Positions 44,635 through 57,843 of a stretch of 58,179 nucleotides of DNA are shown here, piece after piece; the first letter of the stretch is position 1, and every line of letters starts with the position of its first letter. The translations under genes and the position numbers were made by a program. This DNA is from Oxalobacteraceae bacterium (lineage in GTDB: Bacteria; Pseudomonadota; Gammaproteobacteria; Burkholderiales; Burkholderiaceae_D). The DNA is taken from NCBI GenBank assembly GCA_900299005.1, contig OMID01000029.1, positions 1 through 58,179 on the forward strand. The letters are read 5' to 3'. The notes beneath the pieces were generated by a model that was not told the DNA's origin, did no database searches, and saw only the letters and a list, made by a program, of their open reading frames with translations.

Positions 44635-46287
44635 ATGATGCAGTATCCCCAGAGCCCTTTGACGGGCCGGATGATGAGCCAGCCTCTGCTGATCTCGAGC
44701 CTGATCAAGCACGCCGATCGGTATTACGGTGACACCGAAGTGGTCTCGCGTCGGGTTGAAGGAGATATGCATCGCTACACCTACCGCGATTGTCACCAGC
44801 GAGCGCGCAAGCTGGCCAATGCGCTCAAACATCTGGGGGTGGCGATGGGCGATCGCGTTGCTACCCTTGCCTGGAATGGTTATCGTCATCTCGAAGCCTA
44901 CTACGCGGTATCTGGTTCTGGCGCCGTGCTGCATACGGTAAACCCCCGACTGCACCCGGAGCAGATTGCCTACATCGCTAACCACGCAGAAGATCAGTAT
45001 CTGTTTTTCGACCTGAATTTTCTGCCGGTGATCGAAGCCATTGCGCCGTTGGCCAAGACGATAAAAGGCTATGTCATGATGTGCGATCGCGATCGCATGC
45101 CGGTTGATTCCAAGGTAGCTAATTTGCTGTGCTACGAAGATCTGATTGCCAGTAGCAGCGACCAATTCGACTGGCCGCTGTTCGATGAGAACTCGGCCTC
45201 CAGCCTGTGCTACACCTCTGGGACCACGGGTAATCCCAAGGGGGCGCTGTATTCACATCGCTCCACCATGCTGCATTCCTACGCATCGGCACTGCCAGAC
45301 GCGCTGAATGTCTCCGCGCGGGATGTCGTCCTGCCGGTCGTGCCCATGTTCCATGTCAATGCCTGGGGCTTGCCGTATTCCGTGATGCTGACCGGCGCCA
45401 AGCTGGTATTCCCCGGCCCAGCGCTGGACGGAAAATCGATCTACGAACTCTTCGAGCAGGAGGGCGTGACATTTTCCGCTGGCGTGCCGACGGTCTGGCT
45501 GGGTCTTCTGACATATACCGCGCAGAATAATCTCAAATTTTCTACTTTCCGACGAACGGTGATCGGCGGCTCGGCTTGTCCGCCGGCGATGATGAAAACT
45601 TTCCGTCACGACTATGGCGTCGAAGTGGTGCACGCGTGGGGGATGACGGAGATGTCGCCTCTGGGTACCTGTTGCACACTTACTGGCAAGCATGCGCACT
45701 TGTCCGATGATGAAAAACAGGCTCGCCTTGAAAAGCAAGGGCGCGCCATTTTTGGTGTGGACATGAAGATCGTCGATGACGATGGCCAGGAATTAGCTTG
45801 GGATGGCAAGACCTATGGCAACCTGCTCGTCAAAGGTCCGTGGGTGATCGAGGCTTACTTCAAGAACGAGGGCGGCAATGTGCTGCAAGATGGCTGGTTC
45901 CCGACGGGCGATGTGGCCGTGATCGACGCGGAAGGCTACATGCAGATCACTGACCGCAGCAAAGACGTGATCAAATCCGGTGGTGAGTGGATAGGTAGCA
46001 TCGATCTTGAAAACATCGCGGTGGCGCATCCCGCCGTGTTGCAGGCGGCCTGCATCGGTATCGCTCACCCCAAATGGGATGAACGCCCCTTACTGGTCGT
46101 GGTGAAGAAACCAGGCATGGAGATCACCAAGGCGGAATTACTCAAATTTTATGAGGGAAAAATAGCAAAATGGTGGACACCGGATGATGTCGTGTTCACT
46201 GACAGTCTGCCCTTGGGCGCTACCGGAAAAATTTTGAAGAACAAGATCCGTGAAGCCTATCGCGACTACAAGCTGCCCACCGCCTGA
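44635..46287 (+). CDS. Fatty acid / carboxylic acid CoA ligase (FadD3-like)
   Basis: This 550-residue adenylate-forming enzyme activates a carboxylic acid with ATP and CoA. Motifs are the P-loop [18 protein letters not shown] (about residue 192), [40 protein letters not shown], and the C-terminal catalytic Lys in [14 protein letters not shown]. It resembles long- and medium-chain acyl-CoA synthetases of Burkholderiales. Substrate length or class cannot be fixed from sequence. A strong ribosome site (AGGAGA) precedes the ATG. It is 51 bases upstream of a branched-chain-type ABC transporter cluster in the same direction. Confidence 0.88.
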
Positions 46288-46338: not shown

Positions 46339-47286
46339 TTGGAATTCACACTGATATCACTGCTCAATGGCCTGAGCTACGGACTGCTGCTATTCATGCT
46401 GTCTTCCGGGCTGACGCTGATATTCAGCATGATGGGGGTGCTCAATTTTGCCCATGCGAGTTTCTACATGCTGGGCGCTTATTTCGGCTACGCGACCAGT
46501 CAGCTGCTTGGCTTCTGGGCAGCGTTGCTGATTGCGCCTGTGCTGACCGGACTTGCGGGAGCGCTGGTCGAACGATTTGGACTGCGCGCCGTTCACAAGT
46601 TTGGGCACGTCTCGGAATTACTGTTCACGTTTGGTCTCTCTTACGTCATCGTCGAGCTGGTGCAGCTGGTCTGGGGACGCTCGGCCGTGCCCTACAAAAT
46701 ACCCCCAGCGCTGGAGGGTCCGTTGTTTTCACTCTTCACGATGGCGTTTCCTGTTTACCGCGGGTTCATGATGCTGGTGGCGGTTCTGATGGTGTTGGCA
46801 ATATGGCTGCTCTTGACTCGCACCCGGATCGGGCTGGTCATCCAAGCTGCGCTGACCCACCCTGAGGCGGTCGAAGCGCTCGGCCACAATGTGCCTCGCG
46901 TGTTCATGATGGTTTTTGGCGGCGGCTGTGCGCTTGCCGGTCTCGCCGGTGTCATCGGTGGCAACGCCTTTGTGACCGAGCCGGCCATGGCCGCGACAGT
47001 GGGGAGCATTATTTTTGTTGTTGTCGTCGTCGGGGGCATGGGCTCCCTGGGTGGCGCCTTTCTCGCCTCGCTGCTGATCGGAATGATCCAGACTTTTGCG
47101 GTTGCGCTCGATTGGTCTCTACTCGGACCTCTGGCGCGTCTGGGCATGGTACCCAATCACGAGTGGCCAGCGTACCGATTGCTCTCGCTGACGCTCTCCG
47201 AAGTGGCGCCGATCCTGCCTTACCTGCTGCTGGTATTGGTACTGATCTTCCGACCACGCGGCCTGATGGGTAAAAGGGAGAGCTGA
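46339..47286 (+). CDS. livH: Branched-chain amino acid-type ABC transporter permease LivH
   Basis: The 315-residue inner-membrane permease, with about eight hydrophobic segments, is of the LivH family. It begins with LISLLNGLSYGLLLFMLSSG and has LIFSMMGVLNFAHASFYMLG, the characteristic N-terminal stretch. The coupling-helix region with ALTHPEAVEALGHNVPRVF is clear. The start is TTG at 46339. It forms a heterodimeric channel with LivM (next gene, 2 bases apart). The substrate need not be a branched-chain amino acid, since relatives import aromatic and other carboxylic acids. Confidence 0.9.
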   Translation: MEFTLISLLNGLSYGLLLFMLSSGLTLIFSMMGVLNFAHASFYMLGAYFGYATSQLLGFWAALLIAPVLTGLAGALVERFGLRAVHKFGHVSELLFTFGLSYVIVELVQLVWGRSAVPYKIPPALEGPLFSLFTMAFPVYRGFMMLVAVLMVLAIWLLLTRTRIGLVIQAALTHPEAVEALGHNVPRVFMMVFGGGCALAGLAGVIGGNAFVTEPAMAATVGSIIFVVVVVGGMGSLGGAFLASLLIGMIQTFAVALDWSLLGPLARLGMVPNHEWPAYRLLSLTLSEVAPILPYLLLVLVLIFRPRGLMGKRES

Positions 47287-47288
47287 GC

Positions 47289-48578
47289 ATGCCAGTCGGG
47301 CCACTGCGATACTCACCCCTCAACCTGAGCCGCTGGCTGGTGTGGAGCAGCTTTGCGCTGGCATTGATCATTGCACCGCTTGTGTTCAGCTCCGGCAGCA
47401 GCGTATCGCTCCTCTCGCTGATGGGGACAGTCATGATTTTCGCGCTGTCGTACAACATGCTGCTCGGCCAGAGCGGGATGCTGTCCTTTGGTCATGCGGT
47501 CTATTCCGGTCTGGGTGCCTTCTTCGCTATCCACGCGATCAATCTGGCCAGCCATGGGGTAGGGTTGGTGCCATTGACCCTGGTGCCGCTGGTGGGCGGC
47601 ATCGCGGGTTTGTTATTTGGCGCGCTTTTTGGCTATGTGACCACTCGTCGGGCTGGCACGGCGTTTTCCATGATTACGATGGGAATCGTGGAACTGGTGT
47701 TCGCTTGCTCCCTGATGTTTCCCGGTTTTTTCGGTGGCGAGGGTGGAATATCGGGTAATCGAGTGTACGGACAACCGGTGCTCGGTATCAGCTTTGGTCC
47801 GCAGATCCATGTCTACTATCTCATTGCGTTCTGGTTGTTCATCAGTACGATCGCCATGTTCGCCTTGGCGCATACGCCTTTGGGTCGGATTGCCAACGCT
47901 GTCCGTGACAATCCTGAACGCGCGGAGTTCGTCGGCTATGACCCTCAGCGAGTGCGTTTCCTCATGCTGATGTTGTCCGCTTTCTTCGCCGGGATATCGG
48001 GTGGTCTGACAGCGATCAATTTCGAGATTGTCAGTGCTGAGAACGAGAGCGCCGCTCGGTCTGGCGCCGTGCTGCTGTTCGCCTTCATCGGCGGCACAGG
48101 CGTGTTTTTTGGACCGATGCTGGGGGCAGTTATTGGTGTGCTGCTGACGGTGATGTTGCCCGAATTGACCAAAGCCTGGTTGCTGTACCTGGGATTGTTT
48201 TTCATCATGATGGTGATGTACGCACCGGGGGGGCTGGCAAGCCTGATCCTGATGAACGTGCGTCTGGCATCGGCAGGTTTGATGCCCCGGGTTCTTCCCG
48301 CCATGCTCAGGCTGGCCGCGCCTCTGCTCATCGCCTTGGCGGGTTTTATCATGTTGATCGAAATGACGTACCGACTATCTCTGGACGCAGCGCACGGCAC
48401 CTCGCTGCACGTGTTTGGTATCAGCGTTGAAGCTACTGCTGCCCCGGCGTGGCTCTGCGCAATCGTGATGCTGCTGATTGGTGGTATTTTTTTCCTGAAG
48501 TGTCGGAAGCCCTTCCTGAATGTCTGGGGTGACGCTCAGGCAGAAACCGAGCGCGCATTGCGGGGAGGGCGGCGATGA
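47289..48578 (+). CDS. livM: Branched-chain amino acid-type ABC transporter permease LivM, C-terminally extended
   Basis: The 429-residue permease has the LivM core: VMIFALSYNMLLGQSGMLSFGHAVYSG is represented in shorter motifs such as GQSGMLSFGHAVYSGLG, then YVTTRRAGTAFSMITMG and the loop IANAVRDNPERAEFVGYD. The typical core ends near residue 320. Here about 105 more residues follow, with two extra hydrophobic segments (LRLAAPLLIALAGFIMLIEM and PAWLCAIVMLLIGGIFFL) and a charged tail. Such extended forms occur in proteobacteria. The purpose is unknown. It overlaps livG by four bases (ATGA). Confidence 0.88.
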   Translation: MPVGPLRYSPLNLSRWLVWSSFALALIIAPLVFSSGSSVSLLSLMGTVMIFALSYNMLLGQSGMLSFGHAVYSGLGAFFAIHAINLASHGVGLVPLTLVPLVGGIAGLLFGALFGYVTTRRAGTAFSMITMGIVELVFACSLMFPGFFGGEGGISGNRVYGQPVLGISFGPQIHVYYLIAFWLFISTIAMFALAHTPLGRIANAVRDNPERAEFVGYDPQRVRFLMLMLSAFFAGISGGLTAINFEIVSAENESAARSGAVLLFAFIGGTGVFFGPMLGAVIGVLLTVMLPELTKAWLLYLGLFFIMMVMYAPGGLASLILMNVRLASAGLMPRVLPAMLRLAAPLLIALAGFIMLIEMTYRLSLDAAHGTSLHVFGISVEATAAPAWLCAIVMLLIGGIFFLKCRKPFLNVWGDAQAETERALRGGRR

Positions 48579-49342
48579 GCACGACCATTCTCGAGCTCAA
48601 GGATGTCCGCAAGCAGTTTGGCAGCGCCGAGATCATCCGGGGAGTGAACCTGTCCGTTCGAACCGGGGAACGCATTGCCATCATCGGCCCCAATGGGGCG
48701 GGTAAATCGACGCTGTTCAATCTCATCTCCGGGCGCTTTGCCCCCAGCAGCGGCGAGATTACGCTCAATGGCCGTCCGATTGCTGGTCTGGCCCCATCTC
48801 AGATTAACCGGCTTGGACTCTCGCGTAGTTTTCAGATAACCAACATCTTCCATCGGTTGTCGGTATTCGAGAACTTGCGCTGTTCGGTGCTCTGGTCACT
48901 GGGTTACCGCTATTCGTTCTGGCACAAGTTGAGTGGTCTCAAAGACGTCCGCGAGCTGGCTGAGCAGGTGATGGAAGCTATTGGCCTTTCATGGCGAAGG
49001 GATACGCCTGCGGGTCTGCTGACCTATGCAGAGCAGCGTGCACTGGAAATCGGCATCACGGTGGCAGGGGGGGCAGAACTGATTTTGCTGGATGAACCTA
49101 CCGCTGGCATGAGTCGCTCGGAATCGGATCGGGCGGTTGAATTAATTCGCCATGTCACTCAAGGCAAAACTTTGCTGATGGTCGAACACGACATGAGCGT
49201 TGTCTTTGGTGTCGCTGATCGCATTGCCGTGGTTGTGTACGGCGAAGTAATTGCTTTTGATACGCCCGCATCGGTTCGAGACAATCCGCGCGTGCAGGAA
49301 GCCTATCTGGGTGGTCATGCCTCGGTGAAGGAGGCCTCGTGA
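48575..49342 (+). CDS. livG: ABC transporter ATP-binding protein LivG with altered signature motif
   Basis: This 255-residue ATPase has Walker A IIGPNGAGKSTLFN (about residues 37-50), Walker B LILLDEPTAGMS and the H-loop in LMVEHDMSVVF, all normal. The signature motif reads LLTYAEQRALEIG: the position that is Gly in LSYGEQ-type LivG motifs is Ala152 (codon 49028-49030). In ABC dimers the signature of one subunit completes the ATP site of the other, so this change affects the site built on the Walker A of LivF, which is also altered. It overlaps livF by four bases (GTGA). Confidence 0.92.
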   Translation: MSTTILELKDVRKQFGSAEIIRGVNLSVRTGERIAIIGPNGAGKSTLFNLISGRFAPSSGEITLNGRPIAGLAPSQINRLGLSRSFQITNIFHRLSVFENLRCSVLWSLGYRYSFWHKLSGLKDVRELAEQVMEAIGLSWRRDTPAGLLTYAEQRALEIGITVAGGAELILLDEPTAGMSRSESDRAVELIRHVTQGKTLLMVEHDMSVVFGVADRIAVVVYGEVIAFDTPASVRDNPRVQEAYLGGHASVKEAS

Positions 49343-50040
49343 CTCCCTTGCTTGAAATACATGACCTGCATGCCTACTACGGCAAGAGCCATGTACTTCA
49401 TGGCGTGAACCTCACCGTGGAGCAAGGCGAGATTGTCAGCCTTCTGGGCCGCAACGGCGTTGGTCGCTCGACCACGGTGAAAGCGGTCATGGGCTTGGTC
49501 AGCGCGACGGGGTCGGTGAAGTTCAAGGGTAATCAGATTCTCGGACTGCCGGCTTACCGAGTCGCGCACTGCGGACTCGGTTACGTTCCTGAAAACCGCG
49601 ATATTTTCCCCACCCTGACCGTTGAGCAGAATCTGATTCTCGGCGAGAAGAAGGGGAAAGCGTCGCGCTGGTGCGTCGATGAGATGTACGCAATGTTCCC
49701 CCGACTGCGCGAGCGTCAGCATACCCAGGCTGGCGTATTGTCAGGCGGAGAGCAGCAGATGCTCACGCTGTGCCGCACCTTGATGGGAGACCCCGATCTG
49801 GTCATGATCGACGAGCCCACGGAAGGACTGGCGCCGAAGATCGTCGAACAGGTGGCTGATTATTTGCAGGCACTCAAGCGGCGTGGCATATCCGTCCTGC
49901 TGGTGGAACAAAAGCTTGCCATTGCGCTCGAGATCTCACAGCGGGTTTACGTGATGGGAAGGGGTGCGATCGTGTTCGAGGGAACTCCGGCCAGTCTGCG
50001 CGGAGATGTTATCGTACGCAAAGAATGGCTGGAGGTATGA
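49339..50040 (+). CDS. livF: ABC transporter ATP-binding protein LivF with altered Walker A
   Basis: This 233-residue ATPase pairs with LivG. Its signature LSGGEQQMLTLCR and Walker B LVMIDEPTEGLAP are normal. The H-loop position is Gln (LLVEQKLAIAL), as is usual for LivF. The Walker A reads LLGRNGVGRSTTVK: the phosphate-binding Lys is Arg43 (CGC, 49465-49467). Such a change normally lowers ATP binding or hydrolysis. The start is GTG, overlapping the livG stop. An alternative reading is that the Arg form is a tolerated lineage variant. Confidence 0.92.
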   Translation: MTPLLEIHDLHAYYGKSHVLHGVNLTVEQGEIVSLLGRNGVGRSTTVKAVMGLVSATGSVKFKGNQILGLPAYRVAHCGLGYVPENRDIFPTLTVEQNLILGEKKGKASRWCVDEMYAMFPRLRERQHTQAGVLSGGEQQMLTLCRTLMGDPDLVMIDEPTEGLAPKIVEQVADYLQALKRRGISVLLVEQKLAIALEISQRVYVMGRGAIVFEGTPASLRGDVIVRKEWLEV

Positions 50041-50100: not shown

Positions 50101-51342
50101 ATGAAATCGCTGAACCGCCCATTGATGGCTGGCTTGACGCTGGCCTTTGCCGTGCTTCCAGTCACTGCGCTGTCGGACAATATCAAAATCGCATTTATCG
50201 ATCCGCTATCCGGTCCGTTTGCGCCGGTGGGGCAGAACACCTTCCGCAGTTTTCAAATTTCTGCCGAGATCGCCAACCGTGAGAAATGGGCTTTGGGTCA
50301 TACGTTCGAGATCACTGGCTTCGACAACAAGGCCAGCCCGCAAGAATCCCTGACTGTGCTTAAAACCGTCATTGATCAGGGTTATCGCTACATTGCCCAG
50401 GGCAATGGTTCGGGTGCTGCAGGTGCGCTGATTGATGCGATCAACAAGCATAACGAGCGCAACCCAGGCAAGGAAATCGTGTTTCTCAATTATGCGGCGG
50501 TTGATCCTGATCTGACTAACAGCAAGTGCAGTTTCTGGCATTTTCGTCTTGATGCGAACTCGGACATGAAGATGGAGGCCCTGACTACCTTTCTCATCAA
50601 GGACAAGTCGGTTAAGAAGGTGTACATCATCGGCCAGAACTATGCGCACGGTCATCAGGTGACAAGGGCGGCAAAAGAGTACCTGAGTCGCAAGCGACCC
50701 GATATCGAGATCGTCGGTGACGATCTTCATCCGATAGGCAGTGTGAAAGATTTCGCACCCTACGTCGCCAAGATCAGTGCTAGCGGTGCGGACACGGTTA
50801 TCACCGGTAACTGGGGTTCCGATCTTGCCCTGCTGGTAAAGGCAGCACGCGAGTCTGATCTGAAAGCCAAGTTTTACACGTACTATGCGTACACGACCGG
50901 TGTCCCCACCGTTATGGGATCGACCGCTGCCGATCACGTGCGTTACGTGGGTACCTGGAATGTGAACAGCGAAATTGCTGCAGGCAAGGATATCGTTGAA
51001 TCATTCAAGAAAAAATACAGCGATGACTTTTACGCAGCGACCGCCTATTCCGCCGTTCAACTGCTGGCCAAGGGTATTGTTCAGGCAAAGTCAACCGACC
51101 CGGTCAAGGTGGCATTTGCGATGGAGGGACAAAAATTCAAGTCGTTGAACGGCGAGGTCGAGATGCGAAAGACGGACCATCAGTTGCAGCAGCCGCTATA
51201 TATCAACACGTGGGTGAAGGTTAATGGCAAGGATGTGAAGTTCGATCAGGAGAACACGGGTTATGGCTGGCGCACTGAACAGAAGGTGGAGCCCTATGTT
51301 GCGGCACAACCGACTTCGTGCAGCATGAAACGTCCTTCATAA
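50101..51342 (+). CDS. Periplasmic substrate-binding protein of the Liv-type ABC transporter
   Basis: This 413-residue type I periplasmic binding protein has a signal peptide (LMAGLTLAFAVLPVTALSDN), then KIAFIDPLSGPFAPVGQNTF, the standard opening of the family. Later segments VYIIGQNYAHGHQVTRAAKE and ADTVITGNWGSDLALLVKAA mark the second lobe. The start at 50101 follows AAGGAG. It delivers the ligand to LivHM. The ligand is not deducible, but the flanking acyl-CoA ligase and beta-oxidation genes suggest a carboxylic acid. It is followed by a strong terminator. Confidence 0.9.
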   Translation: MKSLNRPLMAGLTLAFAVLPVTALSDNIKIAFIDPLSGPFAPVGQNTFRSFQISAEIANREKWALGHTFEITGFDNKASPQESLTVLKTVIDQGYRYIAQGNGSGAAGALIDAINKHNERNPGKEIVFLNYAAVDPDLTNSKCSFWHFRLDANSDMKMEALTTFLIKDKSVKKVYIIGQNYAHGHQVTRAAKEYLSRKRPDIEIVGDDLHPIGSVKDFAPYVAKISASGADTVITGNWGSDLALLVKAARESDLKAKFYTYYAYTTGVPTVMGSTAADHVRYVGTWNVNSEIAAGKDIVESFKKKYSDDFYAATAYSAVQLLAKGIVQAKSTDPVKVAFAMEGQKFKSLNGEVEMRKTDHQLQQPLYINTWVKVNGKDVKFDQENTGYGWRTEQKVEPYVAAQPTSCSMKRPS

Positions 51343-51401: not shown

Positions 51402-51520
51402 GTTGGCAGCAAAAACGCTCGATCAGGAGGTGGGGTCTTCGCCACAGTCTGCGCGCTGCTATGGACAGACCTTTGCGACAACCGAGACACTCGTGCTCAT
51501 CCAAACCGAGGGAGGGTGAG

Positions 51521-52768
51521 ATGGGTAAGGTGGGTCGCTACGGGTCAGCATCAGTGGTCAAAGGGTCAATGATGAGGGTACAAACGATCATGTTGCTGGC
51601 AATACTCTCGGGCTATGTCACACCAGCCTGTGCCGAGACACTGCGGATAGGGCTCAGCGGACCCTTTAGTGGCGGATCAAGTCCGATGGGCGAGAGCATG
51701 CGCAACGGCGTCAGACTGGCAGTGGCTGAAATCAATGGCGCTGGGGGCATCCATGGTGTTCCGATCGAGCTCGTTGAGCGTGACGATACGGCAAATGAGC
51801 AGGTCGGCGCAAAAATTGCGGAAGAGCTGACGCAGCTGCGAGTAATAGCGACCATCGGCATTGTCAACACAGGTGTTGGTCTTGCTTCTATCGATTACTA
51901 TCAGCGCGCGAAGATTCCATTAATTATTGCCGTATCCACGGGGCCTGCACTCACGCGTAAGTTCGCGCCGCCAGCGGCAGTTGCTAATTATATTTTTCGG
52001 GTGTCGCCCACGCTGGATCTGGAAGCACGGGTGCTCGCCACTGATCTCAAAAAGAAATCGCTGCTCAAGGTCGCTTTGCTCGCCGACACGACGGCTTACG
52101 GTGAAAGTGGTGCGCTCGCCTTTGCGGAGCAGGCAAGGTTAATGGGGCTCGATCTCGTATCCCAGCAACGGTTCAAGCTTGGCGACAGCGACATGAGCGT
52201 GCCGATCAAGAACGCAAGAGCCGCCGGGGCACAAGTAATCGTCGCCTGGGGCATCGGACCTGAGCTGGCCTCCATTGCAAAAGGCATGCGTTCTTCCGGT
52301 TGGCGGGTACCTCTGCTGGGAAGCTGGACGCTTTCCATGCGAAATTTCATGGATATTGCAGGCGCTGCCGGCGATGGTGCGTTGATGCCACAGACCTTCA
52401 TTCAGGATGCTGGCTCCATTGCGAAAAACAGTTTTCTTCTGGCCTACCAACGAACGTTCAAGACAGACAGGATTCCTTCCCCGATGAGCGCTGCGCAGGG
52501 TTATGACGGAATGCATTTGCTGGCGCATGCCATACGGCAGGCCAAGTCATTGCATGGCGATGCCATCCGGCAGGCAATGGAACATCTAAATTTTCGCTAT
52601 CAGGGCGTAGTGACCAGTTACGAAGATCCTTTCAGCGCGGAGGATCATGACGCGATCACGGCCAACATGATCGTGATGGGCAAAGTGAGCGGCGGTCGTG
52701 TCGAGTACGCCTATCATGAGGATCAGCAGCGTAGTGCACTGCTGAGAATGAAACGCACGGGCAATTAA
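51521..52768 (+). CDS. Second periplasmic binding protein, Liv type
   Basis: This 415-residue type I binding protein is unlike its upstream neighbour in detail. After a signal peptide (TIMLLAILSGYVTPACAET) comes LRIGLSGPFSGGSSPMGESM, then VAEINGAGGIHGVPIELVER, the typical LivK-like first lobe, and VALLADTTAYGESGALAFAE in the hinge region. The start at 51521 follows GGAGGGTGAG. The Met pair at 51569/51572 would give a more ordinary signal length. It is separated from the transporter by a terminator and may have its own promoter, possibly offering a second ligand to the same permease. Confidence 0.85.
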   Translation: MGKVGRYGSASVVKGSMMRVQTIMLLAILSGYVTPACAETLRIGLSGPFSGGSSPMGESMRNGVRLAVAEINGAGGIHGVPIELVERDDTANEQVGAKIAEELTQLRVIATIGIVNTGVGLASIDYYQRAKIPLIIAVSTGPALTRKFAPPAAVANYIFRVSPTLDLEARVLATDLKKKSLLKVALLADTTAYGESGALAFAEQARLMGLDLVSQQRFKLGDSDMSVPIKNARAAGAQVIVAWGIGPELASIAKGMRSSGWRVPLLGSWTLSMRNFMDIAGAAGDGALMPQTFIQDAGSIAKNSFLLAYQRTFKTDRIPSPMSAAQGYDGMHLLAHAIRQAKSLHGDAIRQAMEHLNFRYQGVVTSYEDPFSAEDHDAITANMIVMGKVSGGRVEYAYHEDQQRSALLRMKRTGN

Positions 52769-55246: not shown

Positions 55247-56674
55247 TCAGTCAGTATCTCCTCGAATACTGGAAGCGGGTTTTTCAGCGGGATGGCTGCT
55301 GATGACTCTGGGGATTCCACTAGCACCCGCCGTATGCAAAACGACCGGTCTGCGCCACATCCTTGCAATGTACTCAAGTACCCTTTCGGCACGCCCAAGA
55401 TCTAGGCCGCTTCCATCGCTTTGATAATCGTGAGTCAGTTCAAGACTTCCATCAACATGAACTTTGTTCACAGCGATTCTTGGCGCTCCATAATTGAATC
55501 GCGAAGCCAGTAAAGCCTCTCTCAGCGAGAATATGTCTCTTTCAATGATACGAATACTCCCCTCGGAATTGGCTGTGTAAACAAAAAGTCCGAGTTTCTC
55601 TGCGAGTTCTTCTGTTAGGTAATTCCTGATGAAGCCAAAATCATCTTCTTCCCTGCATATCGCTCGGGCAGCCACAATGCCTTGTTTTTCAATAAGGTCT
55701 TCCCAGATCGAAAATCCCAGATGATAGGGGTTGATCGCCAGCGCCAGCTGATCATCTCCAGCGAAAGGACGTACTACATCCGAGTGTGCCTTGACCGCAG
55801 AAAGATATAACTCATCCGGCAGAAAATCGGCTTCGCGAAGTAAACGTGCATGCCAGTAGGATGCCCATCCCTCATTCATGATCTGACAGGCAAAAACAGG
55901 ATAAAAATAGAAAGATTCCTGCCGAACAGCAAGAAAAATATCACGCTCCCAACCGGCGAGCTCAGGTGCAAAGTGCGCAATAAACCAAAGCAAGTCATAT
56001 TCCGGCCGGCGAGGAAAGCATGGTGGAATGAGCGCATCATCCGTATCACGGCTCGGGGGCTGCGCGACAGGTAATTGCTGAAATTTATTTAAGAATGGAT
56101 TCGACATGACGGTGCGATCTGTTGCCGCTTCTTTGAAAGTAAGATCGCTTGCTTCACGATGCAGCCTCTGATTGATATCGATATGTGGCTCAAGAGCCAG
56201 CGCTGCATCGAGAACGGCCTCTACGCGCTGCTGACCATGAGTTTGCAGCGCTAATTCAATATTGTGTGCGCGTTCCGCCGCCGGTTCCAGTATGCGATTG
56301 CCAGCCATGTGCATAAATCTGGAAAATAAATGATTGTTTTTTACAAAATCTGCATGACCGATAACATGAGCAATCACTAGCGTGTTTTCCGCGATTGAAT
56401 TATCTCGAGCAAGATACGCATGGCAGGGATTACCGGGAAACATCACTTCAAAAATGCGTGAATGACCCATCCCCTGACGTATCAATTGATGAATGTAGCG
56501 CAAACCAAATGACCAATGTGGCATGCGGACTGGCAGGCCATAAACGGCGATTTCGGACATGAAATTATTCGGCACGATATCAAAATGAATCGGGTAATAA
56601 TCCAGTCCTGAACTTACCGCCAATTTTTCTAATTTCTCGGCATACACGGCCAGATTCATCCCATCGTGTTGCAT
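55247..56674 (-). CDS. SpoVR family protein (YcgB-like)
   Basis: This 475-residue soluble protein belongs to the SpoVR family. Conserved segments include YAEKLEKLAVSSGLDYYPIH at the start, MPHWSFGLRYIHQL, the segment YLARDNSIAENTLVIAHVIG with its His pair, and FACQIMNEGWASYWHARLLR. The start ATG (56674-56672) overlaps the stop of the DUF444 gene (TAATG), so upstream in-frame codons are rejected. In many proteobacteria SpoVR, DUF444 and PrkA form one operon induced by starvation. The biochemical role is unknown. Confidence 0.93.
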   Translation of the reverse strand: MQHDGMNLAVYAEKLEKLAVSSGLDYYPIHFDIVPNNFMSEIAVYGLPVRMPHWSFGLRYIHQLIRQGMGHSRIFEVMFPGNPCHAYLARDNSIAENTLVIAHVIGHADFVKNNHLFSRFMHMAGNRILEPAAERAHNIELALQTHGQQRVEAVLDAALALEPHIDINQRLHREASDLTFKEAATDRTVMSNPFLNKFQQLPVAQPPSRDTDDALIPPCFPRRPEYDLLWFIAHFAPELAGWERDIFLAVRQESFYFYPVFACQIMNEGWASYWHARLLREADFLPDELYLSAVKAHSDVVRPFAGDDQLALAINPYHLGFSIWEDLIEKQGIVAARAICREEDDFGFIRNYLTEELAEKLGLFVYTANSEGSIRIIERDIFSLREALLASRFNYGAPRIAVNKVHVDGSLELTHDYQSDGSGLDLGRAERVLEYIARMWRRPVVLHTAGASGIPRVISSHPAEKPASSIRGDTD

Positions 56675-57843
56675 TAGATGTGCTCCGACTGTGAAGAATC
56701 CTGCTGGAAGAATTGCCGGATGGCTTTCCACACGTCTTCCGGCTGATTTAAAACGCAGCTCCCAAGAGAGGCTCCGGATTGCTCGAGCTGTTTGCAAATC
56801 ATGCCCATCTCGGATTCCATCACTCTTGGGTTGCCGGGCGCGGTTTCGACATAGCCGACAAAATTCAGCATTGAGGTTAACTGGGTAAGTCCACTGATGG
56901 CAGCGTTTCTGTCCTCTGTAAAATTTTCCCCATCCGAAGCATAAAAAAAATAAATATTATGCTGTGATGGATCGTATTCCGATTTGATCATGTCCACAGC
57001 CCTATGGAAGGCCGTTGATGCACCGGTACCACCCGTTCCGGTAACTTGAAAAAATTCAGATTCGGAAAATTCCCAAGCTTGAGTGGTATGGGCAATAAAC
57101 CGCGTTTCTACCTTGCCATACTTGCGACGTATCCCTTCAAGTGCGAAAAAAAAGAAAGTCTTTGCCAGCTTGCGCTCAGCCTCGGTCATGCTTGCGGAAA
57201 CATCCAAACCAAAAATGACTACAGCACTAGTTGTTGGAGTTTGTTTGTGGATTAGCGGTCTGAAGCGTAAATCTTCATTGGAGAAAGGGACCGGATCATT
57301 TTGGATCGTCCTTCGTTTTACCGCTTCCTTTGCTGTGCGCCGTCTGTCTAGACGAGCGCGGGCACCGTGTTTGTCCCAGCCTTCGCGAGAAAACTCCTTA
57401 TCATGGAGAGCGGGTTTTCGTTTAGGCTGCAACTCCGGGAGCTTCAATTCATCCCATATCCAGTCAATGATGTCATCCACCTGGATCTCAAGCAGCAGGC
57501 GAACTTCGCCTTCGCCGCTGGCTGCGCGTACTTCACCATTATCTTGTCCCGGTTGTCCAGTTTGAAGCACTTCACCGGGCTGTGCCTGGCCCTGTCCCAC
57601 ATGATGCGCGTTGCTACGGCTTTTCTCTACCAGCCGGAATCGTGCATGCTCCAACACTCGCACCGGAACGTGGACCATGCGGTTTTCTGTGCCCGTAATG
57701 AGATCATTTCCACAAATAAGTCCTGGTAAATTCTGCTGTACGCTCTCGCGGATTTTTTCATTGTGCCTCAGCCAGTCGCGTGCCCCCCGTGAAAATAGGG
57801 CATACCAAGGAGAATCGGAAGAAATCGTGCTAGGCGTTTTCAT
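56674..57843 (-). CDS. DUF444 family protein (YeaH/YhbH), von Willebrand A-like
   Basis: This 389-residue cytoplasmic protein is of the YeaH/YhbH family. The N-terminal part is charged, with Gly/Gln-rich linkers. The C-terminal half has a von Willebrand A-like domain with a metal-site motif FGLDVSASMTEAERKLAKTF (DxSxS) and the segment FFQVTGTGGTGASTAFHRAV. It overlaps prkA upstream (ATGA) and the SpoVR gene downstream (TAATG), showing a translationally coupled operon. In E. coli YeaG and YeaH act together in nitrogen-starvation stress. Confidence 0.93.
   Translation of the reverse strand: MKTPSTISSDSPWYALFSRGARDWLRHNEKIRESVQQNLPGLICGNDLITGTENRMVHVPVRVLEHARFRLVEKSRSNAHHVGQGQAQPGEVLQTGQPGQDNGEVRAASGEGEVRLLLEIQVDDIIDWIWDELKLPELQPKRKPALHDKEFSREGWDKHGARARLDRRRTAKEAVKRRTIQNDPVPFSNEDLRFRPLIHKQTPTTSAVVIFGLDVSASMTEAERKLAKTFFFFALEGIRRKYGKVETRFIAHTTQAWEFSESEFFQVTGTGGTGASTAFHRAVDMIKSEYDPSQHNIYFFYASDGENFTEDRNAAISGLTQLTSMLNFVGYVETAPGNPRVMESEMGMICKQLEQSGASLGSCVLNQPEDVWKAIRQFFQQDSSQSEHI

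What the first reader, a model, noticed from the sequence alone, without database searches (positions are those of the whole stretch)
49018..49475. LivG and LivF motif changes fall in one composite ATP site
LivF has Arg43 in place of the Walker A lysine (GRNGVGRSTT). LivG has Ala152 in place of the signature glycine (TYAEQR instead of the usual YGEQ or YGQQ). In ABC ATPase dimers, the Walker A of one subunit and the signature of the other form one ATP site, so both defects land in the same site. The other site (LivG Walker A GPNGAGKST plus LivF LSGGEQQ) is intact. This predicts a heterodimer with one consensus and one degenerate site, as in asymmetric exporters, but in a type I amino acid importer. 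Co-degeneration of both halves argues against random error.
Basis: partly seen in the sequence, partly recalled or inferred. Interest (0 to 1): 0.72.

Follow-up and report, generated by a model that had tools for sequence, protein, structure and literature searches.

The report
Lopsided ATPase pair in nutrient importer
The two ATP-burning subunits of this bacterial nutrient importer make one normal ATP site and one altered site, a conserved arrangement in many Proteobacteria that suggests the pump runs on one working site while the other does a different job.

Summary
The residues are as reported: LivF Arg43 replaces the Walker A lysine, LivG Ala152 the second signature glycine, and both line one composite ATP site. 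Codons vary.

Two corrections. First, asymmetry runs through the sampled family: in 325 LivFG-type pairs the key residues of the other site are invariant, while LivF lacks the H-loop histidine in 324. Second, the changes are separable: K-to-R arose twice, once without the LivG change (45 pairs keep Gly), and 18 of 147 K43 pairs lack that glycine. Strict coupling is not shown.

Precedents exist: ABCG5/G8 has Walker A K-to-R plus a deviant partner signature in one site, and RbsA-type importers have a similar layout. Best reading: one hydrolysing site and one remodelled, probably non-hydrolytic site. Biochemistry is untested. New variant of a known kind.

The parts
48575..49342 (+). LivG-type ATPase subunit (255 aa)
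   Evidence: PF00005 plus PF12399
49339..50040 (+). LivF-type ATPase subunit (233 aa, GTG start)
   Evidence: model pLDDT 93.6, best PDB match 1ji0
48686..48712 (+). LivG Walker A GPNGAGKST (intact site); K44 in 325 of 325 pairs
48833..48835 (+). LivG Q-loop Gln87 (intact site), 325 of 325
49019..49039 (+). LivG signature LTYAEQR (altered site); Tyr151 and Ala152 at the two glycine positions
   Evidence: aligned to LptB G140 and G141
49187..49189 (+). LivG H-loop His205 (intact site), 325 of 325
49447..49476 (+). LivF Walker A GRNGVGRSTT (altered site); Arg43 codon at 49465-49467
   Evidence: R43 in 131 of 131 pairs with LivF at least 52% identical
49591..49593 (+). LivF Q-loop position, Glu85 instead of Gln (altered site; Glu in 295 of 325 pairs)
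49738..49758 (+). LivF signature LSGGEQQ (intact site); both glycines 325 of 325
49810..49815 (+). LivF Walker B Asp158-Glu159 (altered site, but kept: Glu 325 of 325)
49909..49914 (+). LivF H-loop: Gln191 (His in LptB) followed by Lys192, the clade-specific basic residue
49957..49959 (+). LivF Gly207, distinctive of the clade (133 of 133 against 2 of 147 K43 pairs) and shared with its sister L300
50026..50028 (+). LivF Trp230, distinctive of the clade; aligns with LptB Tyr234, which touches Walker A
46339..47286 (+). LivH-type permease
   Evidence: PF02653
47289..48578 (+). LivM-type permease
   Evidence: PF02653
50101..51342 (+). substrate-binding protein next to livF
   Evidence: PF13458; a homologue lies with LivH, LivG and LivF in all 15 named clade loci that gave a pair

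Best explanation
LivG and LivF form a head-to-tail heterodimer with two unlike ATP sites. Site 2 (LivG Walker A/B, Q- and H-loop, plus LivF LSGGEQQ) is consensus and very probably does the ATP hydrolysis that drives import. Site 1 (LivF Walker A/B, Q- and H-loop, plus the LivG signature) has been altered in two layers. A layer seen through the sampled family has LivF H-loop His replaced (mostly by Gln), the Q-loop Gln mostly Glu, and usually a residue other than Gly at the first LivG signature glycine. A clade-specific layer has K43R, N192K, LivG G152A/S and Y230W, placed on one stem branch. Site 1 is most likely a non-hydrolytic site that holds nucleotide weakly or statically, or only helps close the dimer. 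Shown: the residues, their conservation, the phylogeny, and the invariance of site 2 residues. Inferred: the dimer itself, the site assignment (from homologous ABC dimers), and the loss of hydrolysis.
For: Residues read directly. Site 2 residues LivG K44, Q87, E174, H205 and LivF G136, G137 are identical in 325 of 325 pairs, while LivF191 is His in only 1. All 178 R43 pairs are of two kinds, without mixtures: 133 with Lys/Arg192 and LivG Ala/Ser152, and 45 with Asn192 and Gly152; each kind is one clade on the tree of all 325 pairs. The window's clade is one branch in the LivF, LivG and joint trees of 102 representatives (SH-aLRT 98, 94, 99), each with the same sister L300, which has K43, H191, N192, Y230 and LivG G152. 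No K43 row falls inside the clade, over a length of 13.97 substitutions per site (34 representatives). Site make-up as stated in PMC7756269 (passage). In ABCG5/G8 the same pair of changes goes with one site inactive for hydrolysis (passages of PMC7756502 and PMC8403869).
Against: The Walker B glutamate of LivF (E159) is kept in 325 of 325 pairs and the A-loop Tyr14 in 242 of 251, which a dead site might be expected to lose. No ATPase, binding or transport data exist here. The heterodimer was not modelled. K-to-R and G-to-A are mild swaps; in ABCC1 a Gln or Asn at the NBS2 H-loop kept wild-type-like transport (PMC7756269 passage), so Gln191 alone need not be inactivating. [quoted passage not shown]
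Confidence: 0.72

Rival explanations
1. Site 1 is rewired rather than dead. The positive charge lost with the Walker A lysine is replaced by Lys192 next to the H-loop, so site 1 still binds ATP firmly and may hydrolyse slowly with the kept Glu159.
For: Lys (130) or Arg (3) at 192 in 133 of 133 pairs of the window's clade but 0 of 45 in the second R43 clade and 5 of 147 K43 pairs. Lys192 follows Gln191, which aligns with LptB His195, a gamma-phosphate contact. Glu159 kept in 325 of 325. In the model Lys192 lies just before helix 193-199.
Against: The second R43 clade manages without a basic residue at 192. No distance to nucleotide could be measured. The LivG signature is also altered. [quoted passage not shown]
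Confidence: 0.18
2. Two independent neutral losses: site 1 was already dispensable in the family, and K43R and G152A/S are relaxed drift fixed by chance on one branch.
For: LivG152 is not Gly in 18 of 147 K43 pairs; at least 6 gain/loss changes on the tree. R43 with Gly152 exists (45 pairs).
Against: After fixation the residues do not drift: five Arg codons but only Arg at 43, nine codons but only Ala or Ser at LivG152 (118 pairs); no K43 row inside the clade over 13.97 substitutions per site.
Confidence: 0.1
3. Sequencing error or a decaying pseudogene in this genome.
For: None found.
Against: Intact frames, the same residues in close and distant clade members, one exact copy of the Walker A stretch in the genome.
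Confidence: 0.01

Closest known systems
ABCG5/ABCG8 sterol exporter
   Same: One partner has Arg for the Walker A lysine (ABCG8 GSSGCGRAS, Arg111) and the other a deviant signature (ABCG5 ISTGE), both in the same site; one active site is said to be enough for sterol transport (passages of PMC7756502 and PMC8403869).
   Different: Mammalian exporter; here a bacterial binding-protein-dependent importer. A basic residue after the H-loop was not compared.
RbsA/NupO/AraG/XylG (CUT2-type sugar and nucleoside importers)
   Same: Second NBD has GxxGAGR in E. coli RbsA, AraG and XylG (MglA did not match my pattern) and, by eye, Ser at the H-loop position in 4 of 4; the first RbsA signature is LSIGDQQ. 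One degenerate site is noted for B. subtilis RbsA and NupO (PMC11466899 passage). Permease RbsC is in the same Pfam family PF02653 as LivH and LivM.
   Different: Both NBDs fused in one chain; here two genes. Whether the layouts are homologous or convergent was not tested. The family name CUT2 is recalled.
Canonical LivFG (E. coli branched-chain amino acid importer)
   Same: Same gene set, H-loop Gln in LivF, LAYGDQR signature in LivG.
   Different: E. coli keeps Walker A Lys, Asn after the H-loop Gln, and the second signature Gly.
Second R43 LivF clade (e.g. the same genome's paralogue at G000:C31:63200)
   Same: K43R with the residues of site 2 intact.
   Different: 45 pairs with N192 and LivG Gly152 and Ile-Ser (26) or Ile-Thr (19) after the Walker B Glu; a separate origin (AU p 2.3e-13 against one clade).

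Membership tests
HAAT/Liv-type ABC importer | two BPD_transp_2 (PF02653) permeases, two ABC_tran ATPases, LivG C-terminal PF12399, Peripla_BP_6 binding protein | tested here: met
HAAT/Liv-type ABC importer | match to a curated LivF/LivG or UrtD/UrtE equivalog above cutoff | tested here: not met
   LivF 184.2 bits (cutoff 441), UrtE 230.6 (285.8); LivG 180.3 (362), UrtD 201.4 (304.1). So a Liv-type system by domains, but not a member of these named models; substrate unknown.
ABC transporter with one degenerate nucleotide site | motif deviations in one composite site, the other consensus | tested here: met
   the dimer itself is assumed
ABC transporter with one degenerate nucleotide site | hydrolysis at one site only | not testable with these tools
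   needs biochemistry
ABCG5/G8 | Walker A Lys to Arg plus deviant partner signature in the same site | tested here: met
ABCG5/G8 | half-transporter chains holding NBD and TMD together | tested here: not met
   separate permease and ATPase genes
CUT2 (RbsA-type) importer | two NBDs fused in one chain | tested here: not met
   LivG and LivF are separate genes
CUT2 (RbsA-type) importer | altered site with Walker A Arg, H-loop not His, deviant partner signature | tested here: met

The most novel reading that the evidence does not exclude
On one branch of the LivFG family the second ATP site was rebuilt, not lost: its catalytic lysine moved from the P-loop (K43R) to the switch loop (N192K) while the partner signature glycine became Ala/Ser and the tail residue that packs under Walker A became Trp. 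The result would be a new kind of stable, slow or regulatory ATP site kept by selection in a bacterial importer.
Probability: 0.18. Interest if true: 0.7.

Novelty: new variant of a known kind. Interest (0 to 1): 0.46.

Why it matters
Why some ABC transporters keep one altered ATP site is an open question, argued in the papers I saw mainly from exporters. LivFG pairs give a large bacterial importer family in which one site is constant and the other varies in steps: H-loop His absent nearly throughout, K-to-R without a signature-glycine change in one clade, K-to-R with a signature change and a new basic residue in another, and glycine loss alone elsewhere. These are natural, separable variants, so the role of each change can be tested directly.

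Tried and rejected
Rejected: sequencing error (conserved, varied codons). Rejected: strict co-evolution of R43 and A152; only two origins of R43, and treekit's independent-pairs test had two pairs, too few to reach significance. Rejected: the idea that R43 evolved once (AU p 2.3e-13; the grouping was tested after a first tree had been seen, and on a quick tree). On the LivG tree alone one K43 row (L169) falls inside clade 2 and R43 needs three changes, so clade 2 is less clean there.

Circularity: the ranking compares pairs grouped by LivF43 and, for the clade, LivG152, so the ranks of those two columns (1 and 8 of 488) are partly built in; the ranks of LivF192 (2), LivF207 (3) and LivF230 (4) are not. 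For LivF230, 42 of 147 K43 rows were not aligned that far. Likewise 'A/S152 in 133 of 133' and 'Gly152 in 45 of 45' follow from how I sorted the pairs; the free results are that 131 of 131 pairs with LivF at least 52% identical are of the first kind, that no mixture with residue 192 occurs, and that each kind is one clade.

Sampling limits: most clade-1 pairs were fetched because they resemble the query. The less biased sample is 104 pairs from 10 genomes (12 searched, 2 without a match): of 144 LivF matches I took 110. The 34 left out are the weakest, except one stronger place near a contig end (G728:C9:1158) that I also left out; one weak match (L174) was in. Counts (LivF43/LivG152): K/G 72, K/A 9, R/A 7, R/G 6, K/P 4, K/K 2, R/S 1, K/H 1, K/L 1, K/F 1. 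Of 359 loci with a LivF, 18 had no LivG found nearby, 14 were duplicates and 2 too short, leaving 325. Among those dropped is L303 (R43, Arg at 192, no LivG found). The pairs were found by similarity and not sorted by substrate.

The structure model gave no coordinates, so no distances; no dimer was modelled. Paper searches on LivF/LivG or importer asymmetry listed no paper that I saw describe it for LivFG; only open-licence papers are held, and I saw listings and passages, plus one section of PMC6703430. In the passages of PMC2821768 it is not discussed.

Full report
Observation. The window encodes LivH (46339-47286), LivM (47289-48578), LivG (48575-49342), LivF (49339-50040) and two binding proteins, all on the + strand. 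LivF reads GRNGVGRSTT at Walker A, LSGGEQQ at the signature and LLVEQK at the H-loop. LivG reads GPNGAGKST, LTYAEQR and MVEHD. So R43 (codon 49465-49467) and A152 (codon 49028-49030) are real.

Which site. In ABC dimers one site takes Walker A and B, A-, Q- and H-loops from one subunit and the signature from the other (PMC7756269, passage; PMC6703430 section 7). Alignment to LptB gives LivF R43 = K42, E85 = Q85, Q191 = H195, K192 = N196, W230 = Y234, and LivG Y151 = G140, A152 = G141. R43, E85, Q191, Y151 and A152 fall in one site, LivF body plus LivG signature; K192 is the neighbour of Q191. The LivF model has mean pLDDT 93.6, with 1ji0 and ATP-bound LptB as top PDB matches. The dimer itself is assumed from the family, not shown here.

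Family-wide layer. I collected LivF-LivG pairs from the window's genome, family, order and phylum, from a paralogue sample of ten genomes and from one scan of named genomes. Of 325 distinct pairs, LivG K44, Q87, E174 and H205 and LivF G136 and G137 are identical in 325. LivF191 is Gln in 313, Lys in 10, Ser in 1 and His in 1. LivF85 is Glu in 295. LivF E159 is Glu in 325. E. coli LivF also has the Gln. The LivFG pair is therefore lopsided throughout the sampled family.

Clade-specific layer. R43 occurs in 178 of 325 pairs and in two kinds only: with Lys/Arg192 and LivG Ala (114) or Ser (19), 133 pairs; and with Asn192 and LivG Gly152, 45 pairs. The 147 K43 pairs have LivG Gly152 in 129 and another residue in 18. 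All 131 pairs whose LivF is at least 52% identical to the window's are of the first kind. Of 488 columns compared between the first kind and K43 pairs, LivF43 ranks first and LivG152 eighth, which is partly built into the grouping; LivF192, 207 and 230 rank second to fourth, which is not. LptB Tyr234, the counterpart of LivF230, touches the Walker A residues G36 and P37, and LptB His195 contacts the gamma-phosphate (PMC6703430 section 7). So the most distinctive free columns include the neighbour of the H-loop residue and a tail residue that packs against Walker A in a homologue.

History. With the trait columns masked, all 325 pairs give two origins of R43, and the 133 and the 45 pairs each form one clade without intruders. 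A tree of 102 representatives agrees, and holding all R43 rows together is rejected (AU p 2.3e-13). The window's clade is one branch in the joint, LivF and LivG trees (SH-aLRT 99, 98, 94), each time with the same sister, L300 of a deltaproteobacterial metagenome-assembled genome. L300 has K43, H191, N192, Y230 and LivG G152, but already G207. The changes at 43, 192, 230 and LivG152 are therefore placed on one stem branch; their order is unresolved and rests on a single sister sequence. No K43 row falls inside the clade over 13.97 substitutions per site (34 representatives). Five Arg codons and nine codons at LivG152 in 118 pairs show selection on the protein. Named members include Tepidimonas, Variovorax, Paraburkholderia, Comamonas, Reyranella, Bradyrhizobium, Ruegeria and Achromobacter, and Gamma- and Deltaproteobacteria bins. 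All 15 named clade loci with a pair carry homologues of the binding protein, LivH, LivG and LivF; LivM was detected in 14 of 15.

Against strict coupling. The window's own genome has 11 LivFG pairs: one R43/A152, one R43/G152 and nine K43. In the ten-genome sample (104 pairs) R43 goes with non-Gly152 in 8 of 14, and K43 with non-Gly152 in 18 of 90. With two origins of R43, one accompanied and one not, co-degeneration cannot be demonstrated statistically.

Precedents. ABCG8 carries Arg for the Walker A lysine and ABCG5 a deviant signature in the same site; one active site is said to be enough for sterol transport, and the Arg P-loop goes with reduced ATP binding (passages of PMC7756502 and PMC8403869). 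In importers, B. subtilis RbsA and NupO have one degenerate site with a missing second Walker A lysine (PMC11466899, passage). E. coli RbsA, AraG and XylG show GxxGAGR in the second NBD (MglA did not match my pattern), and four of four have, by eye, Ser at its H-loop position. RbsC and LivH/LivM share PF02653.

Mechanism. Most likely the LivG-Walker-A site hydrolyses and the other does not, or hardly does. The kept Glu159 and the new Lys192 leave open a rewired site that still binds ATP. Biochemistry must decide. The literature searches listed in Tried and rejected showed me no description of LivFG asymmetry in the papers held.

Noticed in passing
G000:C31:63200-63898 (L002/L255), same genome: A second, separate R43 LivF lineage with Ile-Ser or Ile-Thr after the Walker B Glu (45 pairs). 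Related pairs in Pelagibius, Thalassospira and Acidisphaera keep Lys43 and DEPT, while Poseidonocella and Celeribacter have Arg43 with DEIT.
   Followed up: partly
window 44635-46287: Acyl-CoA ligase upstream scores above the NCBIfam cutoff for 3-(methylthio)propionyl-CoA ligase (1012.8 against 822); a ligase homologue lies near the importer in 4 of 15 named clade loci. The cargo may be a carboxylic acid rather than an amino acid.
   Followed up: partly
window 50101-51342 and 51461-52768: Two successive binding-protein genes of the Peripla_BP_6 family follow livF.
   Followed up: no
window 47289-48578: LivM has about 118 residues beyond its BPD_transp_2 domain (40-311 of 429).
   Followed up: no
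L300, 2346-3053: The only LivF of 325 with His at the H-loop; sister to the window's clade.
   Followed up: partly
L180, L185, L193, L194, L204, L207, L209, L212, L217, L218, L223, L224, L226, L229, L239, L246, L249, L254: LivG proteins whose second signature glycine is Ala, Pro, Lys, His, Leu or Phe while LivF keeps Lys43, several with another residue than Pro after the Walker B Glu.
   Followed up: no
window 55247-56797 and 56674-57843 (-): Two overlapping minus-strand frames that look like SpoVR and YeaH/DUF444 genes (frames; names recalled, not scanned).
   Followed up: no
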